NCBI GenBank assembly: GCA_002790315.1 | Contig: PFUW01000003.1 | Coordinates: 5,423-10,903 of the forward strand | DNA: 5,481 bases | Origin: Huberarchaeum crystalense [NCBI: Candidatus Huberarchaeum crystalense] | GTDB lineage: Archaea > Huberarchaeota > Huberarchaeia > Huberarchaeales | Direction of reading: 5' to 3' | In this document: positions 1,382 through 1,623 of the stretch, in pieces | Numbering within the stretch: position 1 is the stretch's first letter | How the letters are laid out: every line of letters starts with the position of its first letter | The notes under the pieces: model-generated | What the model was told of the DNA's origin: nothing | Databases searched by the model: none | Seen by the model: the letters and a program-made list of their open reading frames with translations, nothing else | Program-made: the position numbers and the translations under genes

Positions 1382-1396
1382 CGCAATTATATTGCG
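1382..1396. repeat. Perfect 6-bp hairpin just after tRNA-Ile
   Basis: CGCAAT (1382-1387), loop TAT, ATTGCG (1391-1396) forms a perfect stem three bases after the tRNA-Ile discriminator. No T-tract follows directly, so it is not a standard archaeal terminator. It could be a 3' processing or pausing structure, or chance. Confidence 0.35.
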
Positions 1397-1426: not shown

Positions 1427-1488
1427 CAGGAGATGTAGATTATTCTAAACAATAATTACATCCTTGCTCGATTGTTTCACTCACTTCG
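1427..1488 (+). repeat. Hairpin repeat unit 1 upstream of tRNA-Ser
   Basis: This is the first of two tandem imperfect units. It starts CAGGAGAT and ends CACTTCG. Its core hairpin pairs GATGTA (1432-1437) and ATTATT (1439-1444) with AATAAT (1451-1456) and TACATC (1457-1462): twelve pairs, one bulged G and a six-base loop CTAAAC. Further on, ATCCTTGC (1460-1467) can pair instead with GCAGGGAT (1488-1495), which opens the next unit. The unit is about 9-10 bases longer than unit 2 because of an extra stretch near 1471-1480. I do not recognise the family. Confidence 0.6.
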
Positions 1489-1540
1489 CAGGGATACAAA
1501 TTGTTCAAAGCAACAATTATATCCTTGTTCTCTTTGTTCG
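1489..1540 (+). repeat. Hairpin repeat unit 2, running into tRNA-Ser
   Basis: The second unit starts CAGGGAT and ends TTGTTCG, where the tRNA-Ser sequence takes over with the same CAGGGAT. Its hairpin pairs GGATA (1492-1496) with TATCC (1520-1524) and AATTGTT (1499-1505) with AACAATT (1512-1518), loop CAAAGC. The hairpin sits at the same place as in unit 1. One A-T pair there is a G-C pair here, a compensatory change. ATCCTTGT (1521-1528) can also pair with the tRNA 5' strand GCAGGGAT (1540-1547). The unit also holds the likely tRNA-Ser promoter. Confidence 0.6.
1514..1523 (+). promoter_or_regulatory. Probable TATA box of tRNA-Ser
   Basis: CAATTATATC lies about 22 bases before the tRNA-Ser 5' end, a plausible archaeal TATA distance. 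It is part of the 3' arm of the unit 2 hairpin. The matching place in unit 1 reads AATTACATCC, where the TATA core is lost, so unit 1 may be a decayed copy of this promoter region. Confidence 0.4.
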
Positions 1541-1623
1541 CAGGGATCGCACAGTGGAAGTGCGCCACACTGCTAATGTGGTGGGCTGTGAAGCCTCCGT
1601 GGGTTCGATTCCCTCTCCCTGCA
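1540..1623 (+). tRNA. tRNA-Ser, anticodon GCU
   Basis: This is an 84-base class II tRNA. The acceptor stem GCAGGGA/TCCCTGC is perfect. The D stem GCAC/GTGC carries a short loop AGTGGAA. The anticodon stem CCACA/TGTGG is perfect, with loop CTGCTAA and anticodon GCT, reading AGU/AGC. The long variable arm is GGGCT-GTGA-AGCCT. The T arm is GTGGG/CCCTC with loop TTCGATT and one T-T mismatch at 50-64. The base after the acceptor stem is A, whereas archaeal tRNA-Ser normally has G73. These oddities make it a somewhat divergent tRNA-Ser, but the fold is otherwise intact. CCA is not encoded and there is no intron. Confidence 0.9.

What the first reader, a model, noticed from the sequence alone, without database searches (positions are those of the whole stretch)
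1427..1547. Tandem hairpin repeats with a compensatory base change, fused to the 5' end of tRNA-Ser
Two imperfect units (1427-1488 and 1489-1540) each begin CAGGRxAT, carry a hairpin with a six-base loop (CTAAAC or CAAAGC), continue into TAYATCCTTG, and end in TTCG, after which CAGGGAT recurs as tRNA-Ser itself. In the hairpins ATTATT/AATAAT of unit 1 becomes ATTGTT/AACAAT in unit 2: an A-T pair replaced by G-C on both arms. This suggests that the structure, not only the sequence, has been kept. The repeat is not explained by any gene here. It could be a duplicated tRNA promoter and 5' flank, a structured leader RNA, or a DNA site for a symmetric binding protein.
Basis: partly seen in the sequence, partly recalled or inferred. 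Interest (0 to 1): 0.65.

Follow-up and report, generated by a model that had tools for sequence, protein, structure and literature searches.

The report
Tandem hairpins hugging a tRNA-Ser gene
In a small archaeal genome, two related hairpin-forming repeats sit directly in front of a serine tRNA gene and carry copies of that gene's first bases; similar hairpin-plus-tRNA-end units flank other tRNA genes of the same genome, which points to a kind of tRNA-edge repeat rather than an isolated oddity.

Summary
Two imperfect inverted repeats of 39-40 nt (1427-1466, 1489-1527; about 16 bp, six-base loops) stand in tandem before tRNA-Ser(GCT), and TTCGCAGGGAT occurs exactly at 1485-1495 and at the tRNA start, 1537-1547. 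Two pairs, not one, are compensated and one is broken; by simulation this is only suggestive (P 0.02-0.05). The hairpins are not chance (z -3.5, -5.6). A covariance model finds a third copy (E 0.021) ending 2 nt before tRNA-Leu(TAG), and no match at E<=0.02 in 296 other genomes. Of 40 tRNA genes, the eight Leu/Ser genes have more structured 5' flanks than the other 32 (post hoc P 1e-4 to 5e-4); about half of the others carry an A-rich motif abutting the gene instead. A different palindrome, followed by full or partial copies of tRNA 3' ends, lies 3' of Leu, Ser and Thr genes. I read the feature as tRNA-edge palindromic repeat units, made by local duplication and possibly template switching. 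A functional leader or upstream element for Leu/Ser tRNAs is the main rival. Promoter duplication is unproven. No sense-strand signature of an RNA role was found. No close relative was available, so mechanism stays open.

The parts
1427..1466 (+). Hairpin of unit 1: CAGG-A-GATGTA-G-ATTATT-CTAAAC-AATAAT-TACATC-CTTG, 16 bp
   Evidence: Folding z -3.53, 1 of 200 shuffles as stable; pair table
1467..1488 (+). Spacer of unit 1, ends CACTTCG
   Evidence: Sequence
1485..1495 (+). Exact copy of TTCGCAGGGAT, the tRNA-Ser 5' edge (3 bases of flank plus tRNA positions 1-8)
   Evidence: Direct repeat D1; tRNA positions 1-8 found at -52
1489..1527 (+). Hairpin of unit 2: CAGGGATACAAATTGTTCAAAGCAACAATTATATCCTTG; keeps 15 of the 16 pairs of unit 1
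   Evidence: Folding z -5.63, 0 of 200 shuffles; pair table
1500..1517 (+). Core ATTGTTCAAAGCAACAAT shared with the hairpin upstream of tRNA-Leu(TAG)
   Evidence: 2 zero-mismatch places in the genome for ATTGTTNAAANCAACAAT
1528..1539 (+). Spacer between unit 2 and the tRNA (TTCTCTTTGTTC); lacks the A-rich motif that abuts about half of the tRNA genes here
1540..1623 (+). tRNA-Ser(GCT), the gene the units abut
   Evidence: ARAGORN, Rfam RF00005 57 bits
1305..1378 (+). tRNA-Ile(GAT), 161 nt upstream of tRNA-Ser, same strand; co-transcription possible but not shown
   Evidence: ARAGORN, Rfam

Best explanation
The feature is a pair of tRNA-edge palindromic repeat units. Shown: each unit joins a copy of the 5' end of tRNA-Ser (degenerate in unit 1, exact in unit 2) to an inverted repeat, and the units lie in tandem up to the real gene. 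Shown: a related palindrome precedes tRNA-Leu(TAG); the Leu-CAA flank has another palindrome with a copy of its own tRNA 5' end; and a different palindrome lies 3' of Leu, Ser and Thr genes of the same genome, followed by a full, near or partial copy of the tRNA 3' end. Inferred: the units arose by local duplication of tRNA-gene edges, and their palindromes were made or kept matched by DNA-level events such as template switching, or by insertion of small palindromic elements next to tRNA genes. Whether they were later used as leader or upstream structure is not shown.
For: Exact 11-mer repeat with the tRNA start. Exact copies of tRNA positions 1-8 in the 150 nt upstream occur at 2 of 40 tRNA genes, Ser-GCT and Leu-CAA, each as the 5' foot of a hairpin (Ser; Leu). 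Third model hit ending 2 nt before tRNA-Leu(TAG), E 0.021. The 3' palindrome GTTGTGCGTTTTGCACAAC: of 7 places with up to 3 mismatches, the 6 with at most 1 mismatch lie 3' of a tRNA gene on its strand; 10 copies with a variant in the six loci scanned, with period 49 at two genes, all 10 followed by CCTG. tRNA 3'-half copies 3' of three Leu genes and Thr-GGT. No sense/antisense folding bias (class II P 0.26), consistent with DNA palindromes. In one of five other archaeal genomes read in part, G019, short perfect hairpins are 4.12/kb within 150 nt of tRNA genes against 0.27/kb elsewhere.
Against: No mobility enzyme was tied to the units: no Y1 transposase (PF01797) in the 75% complete genome. 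The 5' and 3' palindromes differ in sequence, so one mechanism is an assumption. Of the 10 copies of the 3' palindrome only 4 are followed by an exact tRNA 3'-end copy, 2 by a near copy and 4 only by CCTGCTCTT. The concentration of 5' structure at Leu/Ser genes is not predicted by a neutral account. No closely related genome was available to see units come and go.
Confidence: 0.45

Rival explanations
1. A functional structured 5' flank or leader of class II (Leu/Ser) tRNA genes. The hairpin is transcribed ahead of the tRNA, or acts as an upstream DNA element, and stands in for the A-rich motif that abuts about half of the other tRNA genes; it would help start transcription, keep the acceptor strand free or set the 5' end.
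For: Folding z of -60..-1: 8 Leu/Ser genes mean -2.67 against -0.49 for 32 others, P 5e-4; repeat run P 1.4e-4, and 0.006 after dropping Leu-TAA, Ser-GCT and Leu-TAG; control window -110..-51 shows nothing (P 0.73). Structure falls as a motif score rises (Spearman 0.53, P 4e-4; the score was made from the same flanks). Leu-TAG and Leu-CAA share the flank ACCCGCAAA but have different stems in the same place. An RNase P p30-like protein exists, below the Pfam cut-off, so leaders might be removed.
Against: The grouping was chosen after seeing the data. For -45..-1 the contrast is weak (P 0.058). Pooled test in 5 other archaeal genomes: 15 Leu/Ser against 44 others, P 0.22. No sense-strand folding bias. 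Leu-AAG and Ser-CGA have little structure (z -0.64 and -1.18). RNase P RNA not found above cut-off. No RNA data.
Confidence: 0.3
2. A duplicated tRNA-Ser promoter: unit 2 carries a TATA-like TTATAT (1517-1522) before the tRNA and unit 1 a related TTACAT (1456-1461), and the palindrome is incidental.
For: TTATAT lies at -23..-18 of the tRNA. N. equitans tRNA promoters have box A 26 nt upstream of the start (PMC3491384, passages).
Against: The two boxes are not at the same distance from the following CAGGGAT copy: unit 1's TTACAT is at -32..-27 of its own. The column profile of 40 tRNA flanks shows no strong TATA column near -26; the stronger signal is A-rich at -11..-7 and T-rich at -4..-3, which tRNA-Ser lacks. 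Pairing over 16 bp is not needed for a promoter.
Confidence: 0.1
3. A DNA site for a symmetric protein: ATTRTT-N6-AAYAAT is an operator repeated upstream of tRNA-Ser(GCT) and tRNA-Leu(TAG).
For: Only two exact places of ATTGTTNAAANCAACAAT in the genome, both just upstream of class II tRNA genes on the gene's strand.
Against: Distances to the gene differ (-40..-23 and -30..-13, from the places). Unit 1 has 3 mismatches to the pattern, a level at which 86 places compare with 61 for the reversed control. The palindrome runs well past an operator core.
Confidence: 0.08

Closest known systems
Repetitive hairpin-forming elements of sponge mitochondrial DNA (PMC2800124, passages read)
   Same: Short hairpin repeats in spacers, some listed 5' of tRNA genes, lineage-specific, mechanism of spread left open by the authors
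   Different: Mitochondrial; the passages I saw do not mention copied tRNA ends, and one speaks of a lack of flanking duplications
REP / BIME palindromes and REP-associated tyrosine transposases (PMC2817692, start of abstract in the listing; PMC12306157, passages)
   Same: Short extragenic palindromes, also reported in archaea
   Different: REPs usually number over 100 per genome with a common motif; here 3 related 5' copies and 10 copies of the 3' palindrome, tied to tRNA genes; no Y1 transposase found
Template-switch hairpins (PMC8794818, abstract and one section)
   Same: Create and repair inverted repeats and give both-side changes in one event
   Different: A mutation process inferred from RNA gene histories; no ancestral sequence here to show a switch
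Leaderless tRNA genes of Nanoarchaeum equitans (PMC3491384, passages)
   Same: Small archaeal genome; about half of the tRNA genes here have a motif right at the 5' end, which would fit short or no leaders
   Different: N. equitans has box A at -26 and no RNase P; here no clear -26 box and a p30-like protein is present

Membership tests
REP palindromes | Many copies per genome with a common motif, in intergenic space | tested here: not met
   Model R1 gives 4 places at E<=10 in the held genome, 3 of them at tRNA genes; 3' palindrome 6 near-exact places, 10 with a variant in six loci
REP palindromes | Associated Y1 (RAYT) transposase | tested here: not met
   No PF01797 match at E<=0.1 in the held genome, 75% complete; the search rings in 8 of 14 controls
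Described RNA family (Rfam 15) | Match above the family's cut-off | tested here: not met
   Only tRNA in the window; the 3 weak matches in 1379-1539 have 11.7-12.9 bits, E 7.6-9.9
Conserved structured RNA element | Covariation over several independent homologues | tested here: inconclusive
   Two units with 2 compensatory pairs and 1 broken, P 0.02-0.05; the third copy forms standard pairs at 13 of the model's 16; no match at E<=0.02 in 296 other genomes, a cut that the third copy itself (0.021) would miss
Duplicated archaeal tRNA promoter | TATA box about 26 nt upstream of the start, as at the genome's other tRNA genes | tested here: inconclusive
   TTATAT at -23..-18, but no clear TATA column near -26 over 40 genes
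Template-switch mutation | Ancestral sequence without the inverted copy | not testable with these tools
   No close relative held
tRNA-targeted integrated element | Integrase gene between repeated att copies | tested here: not met
   Units are 62 and 52 bp long with no room for a gene between the copies; integrase genes elsewhere in the genome were not searched

The most novel reading that the evidence does not exclude
Some small-genome archaea mark the edges of chosen tRNA genes, here mainly Leu and Ser, with structured palindromic modules whose sequence turns over while the fold and place are kept; the modules replace the usual abutting promoter-proximal motif and set how the tRNA 5' end is made. 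A second archaeal genome (G019) has tRNA genes abutted by arrays of several hairpin modules with varied stems and conserved linkers, so the arrangement may have arisen more than once.
Probability: 0.2. Interest if true: 0.72.

Novelty: new variant of a known kind. Interest (0 to 1): 0.42.

Why it matters
If the units are neutral, they show that tRNA-gene edges can be hot spots where palindromes and copied tRNA ends pile up, even in a half-megabase assembly, and that compensatory changes there need not mean RNA selection. If they are functional, they would be an undescribed way (as far as my searches went) to define tRNA 5' flanks in archaea, with Leu/Ser genes treated apart from the rest. Either way the question can be settled by 5'-end mapping and by one close relative.

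Tried and rejected
Rejected: a protein gene over the repeat (only short mechanical ORFs, 69 aa on - and 63 aa on +; neither was tested further). Rejected: a known Rfam RNA. Led nowhere: related loci through the neighbouring MinD-like protein gave 5 distant homologues in genome contigs (27-33% identity) and none in viral contigs; a DNA search of the own genome gave only the place itself and 4 short matches with E 0.4 or more; DNA and model searches of other genomes gave matches in the tRNA part or nothing; viral contigs held neither pattern. Considered and not kept: RNase P loss as in N. equitans. RNase P RNA is not found above cut-off (best 10.1 bits, E 0.25; the same search rings in 12 of 14 controls, over the cut-off in 4) but a p30-like protein is found (29.6-30.2 bits, cut-off 35; no solved structure matched at E<=0.1), so it is undecided. 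Considered and not kept: Leu/Ser-specific structure as a general archaeal trait (pooled P 0.22). Papers: searches are the eight searches that ran, all in one open-access library; in their listings I saw no description of tRNA-edge hairpin units with copied tRNA ends in archaea, which is no proof that none is in print.

Full report
Setting. The window is positions 5239-10719 (minus strand) of contig 3 of a genome of 499,820 bases in 74 contigs, 75% complete. The 60 other genomes listed as relatives all share only its domain, and it is alone in its phylum in the held set. One of them, G019, has archaeal rRNA, so the domain is Archaea. The window carries an SRP54-type GTPase (FtsY-like, cut by the window's edge), tRNA-Leu(AAG), tRNA-Arg(TCT), tRNA-Ile(GAT), tRNA-Ser(GCT), a MinD/ParA-type ATPase, a mechanosensitive channel, a TctA family protein and a 136-aa ORF without a Pfam match. 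The taxon is not named by any search.

The observation. Both units are there at the stated places. Each is a hairpin of about 16 pairs with a six-base loop; the folding energy beats dinucleotide shuffles (z -3.53 with 1 of 200 as stable, and -5.63 with 0 of 200; with the spacers -2.07 with 7 of 200, and -4.69). The eleven bases TTCGCAGGGAT occur exactly at 1485-1495 and 1537-1547, the second being the tRNA start. Between the two hairpins there are 8 substitutions and one missing base. Two pairs change on both sides, one pair is broken, and the other 13 are unchanged. Simulation gives P 0.019 (uniform substitutions) or 0.050 (80% transitions) for at least two double changes, and 0.007 or 0.12 for at most one broken pair. 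So the palindromes are sure; selection on pairing is only suggested.

Other copies. A covariance model of the two hairpins (its E-values are rough) finds, in the genome's own contigs at E up to 10, the two units, a place at C70:19887-19926 with E 0.021 and one weak place with E 8.5. The third ends 2 nt before tRNA-Leu(TAG) and forms standard pairs at 13 of the model's 16. Its core ATTGTTTAAAACAACAAT matches unit 2 at 16 of 18 bases, and the pattern ATTGTTNAAANCAACAAT has exactly two zero-mismatch places in the genome, these two. With up to 3 mismatches there are 86 places against 61 for the reversed control, so weak matches mean little. In 297 genomes, own included, the model hits only the own genome at E up to 0.02, with stricter filters; that cut would miss the third copy itself (0.021), so distant relatives of the unit elsewhere are not excluded.

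All 40 tRNA genes. RF00005 gives 40 matches and I extracted all 40 flanks. A stem-scoring test on -45..-1 finds 6 of 40 flanks at P<=0.05, against 2 of 39, 3 of 38, 4 of 40 and 3 of 38 in four control windows: a mild excess overall. Split by class, the -60..-1 folding z averages -2.67 for the 8 Leu/Ser genes and -0.49 for the other 32 (P 5e-4); for -45..-1 the contrast is weaker (P 0.058). A repeat run gives P 1.4e-4; 3e-4 without Leu-TAA, which shares its flank with Leu-CAA; 0.0014 also without Ser-GCT; 0.006 also without Leu-TAG. The window -110..-51 shows no contrast (P 0.73). I chose this split after seeing the Leu-TAG hit, so it is post hoc. Column counts show A-rich positions -11..-7 and T-rich -4..-3 right before the genes. 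On a score of 0-8 made from these columns, 17 of 40 genes reach 7 or 8, all of them outside Leu/Ser, and their z values are -1.2 or higher; score and z correlate (Spearman 0.53, P 4e-4). tRNA-Ser(GCT) scores 1. There is no clear TATA column near -26.

Copied tRNA ends. Exact copies of tRNA positions 1-8 in the 150 nt upstream occur at 2 of 40 genes, Ser-GCT (-52) and Leu-CAA (-38); in both the copy is the 5' foot of a hairpin whose 3' foot lies close to the gene (Ser; Leu). When only the last 90 nt before tRNA-Ser are folded, so that unit 1 is cut, the best fold pairs the two units with each other instead. On the 3' side, a palindrome GTTGTGCGTTTTGCACAAC has 7 places with up to 3 mismatches; the 6 with 0 or 1 mismatch lie 3' of tRNA genes (Leu-CAA, Leu-TAG, Ser-GGA, Thr-GGT) on the gene's strand. 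With a variant there are 10 copies in the six loci scanned, with period 49 at Leu-CAA and Leu-TAG. All 10 are followed by CCTG: 4 by an exact copy of the tRNA 3' end (Leu-TAG 1, Leu-CAA 2, Thr 1), 2 by a near copy, 4 only by CCTGCTCTT (my count on the rows). BLAST of each tRNA against 500 nt of flank on either side at E<=0.05 finds direct 3'-half copies 3' of Leu-CAA, Leu-TAG, Leu-TAA and Thr-GGT; the other hits are two short direct ones (Trp, Pro-TGG) and four inverted ones, two of which are a neighbouring tRNA. The window's hairpins thus seem to belong to a wider habit of this genome: palindrome plus copied tRNA edge.

Mechanism. Three things favour a DNA-level origin: copied tRNA edges on both sides, tandem growth, and no folding preference for the sense strand (class II Wilcoxon P 0.26, class I 0.78). 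Template switching can make and mend hairpins in single events (PMC8794818, abstract and section 'Causes and Consequences of CMs' read), so both-side changes are not proof of RNA selection. A Y1 transposase was not found. What favours function is the Leu/Ser concentration and the opposition between hairpin and A-rich motif. An RNase P p30-like protein is encoded (29.6 bits, below the cut-off of 35) while RNase P RNA is not found above cut-off, so whether a leader could be cut off normally is open. I put 0.45 on tRNA-edge repeat units of DNA-level origin and 0.30 on a functional 5' flank or leader.

Other archaea. Pooled, 15 Leu/Ser flanks do not differ from 44 others (P 0.22; means -0.54 and -0.20), nor within G019 (7 and 10, P 0.30); flanks under 110 nt or with N were dropped, and one of the 44 is a doubtful 'Stop' call. 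In G019, however, tRNA genes for Trp, two Ser and Ala are abutted by hairpin modules, and 6 of 6 places of AAACGG-N2..7-CCGTTT in its 400 kb lie within about 120 nt of a tRNA gene. Short perfect hairpins are 20 in 4,856 nt within 150 nt of tRNA genes (4.12/kb) against 105 in 393,326 nt elsewhere (0.27/kb); G017 has 3 in 1,910 nt (1.57/kb) against 0.17/kb, G028 1 in 1,500 nt (0.67/kb) against 0.19/kb, G006 and G003 none; the own genome has 3 in 11,775 nt against 1 in 14,300 nt of a sample, a GC-demanding criterion that suits it badly. In the four G019 loci searched, Rfam names no such module. So tRNA-edge palindromes are not general, but they are not confined to one lineage.

Verdict. Function is unproven. 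Novelty: a variant of known palindromic spacer repeats, with the copied tRNA ends as the unusual part.

Noticed in passing
L048, L054, L057, L042, L027 (C70, C13, C37, C16 of the own genome): Palindrome GTTGTGCGTTTTGCACAAC and a variant, 10 copies 3' of tRNA-Leu(TAG, CAA, TAA), Ser(GGA) and Thr(GGT), all followed by CCTG, 4 by an exact and 2 by a near copy of the tRNA 3' end; tandem with period 49 at Leu-CAA and Leu-TAG.
   Followed up: partly
Flanks of the 40 tRNA genes of the own genome; absent at tRNA-Ser(GCT), window 1528-1539: A motif like AAAAANWTTAW directly abuts about half of the tRNA genes (17 of 40 score 7-8 of 8), with no clear TATA box near -26; it may mark very short leaders.
   Followed up: partly
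L138, L143, L144, L152, L154 (unnamed archaeal genome G019): Multi-hairpin arrays next to tRNA genes: modules with conserved linkers (TGCGA..CGAGC, GTG..) and varied, still pairing stems; perfect hairpins about 15-fold denser near tRNA genes than elsewhere; not in Rfam for the four loci searched.
   Followed up: partly
L096:1465-2124 (match at C70:29192-29686 of the own genome): RNase P p30-like protein, 29.6-30.2 bits, below the Pfam cut-off, while archaeal RNase P RNA is not found above cut-off in this 75% complete genome.
   Followed up: partly
L054:150-790 and L048:1150-1640: tRNA-Leu(CAA), (TAA) and (TAG) share flanks on both sides, as if copied with their surroundings; contig C37 ends inside the shared 3' repeat and contig C68 holds a further copy at its end.
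   Followed up: no
window 1382-1396: A small hairpin CGCAA-TTATA-TTGCG directly 3' of tRNA-Ile shares CAATTATAT with unit 2; a terminator or a further palindrome (read).
   Followed up: no
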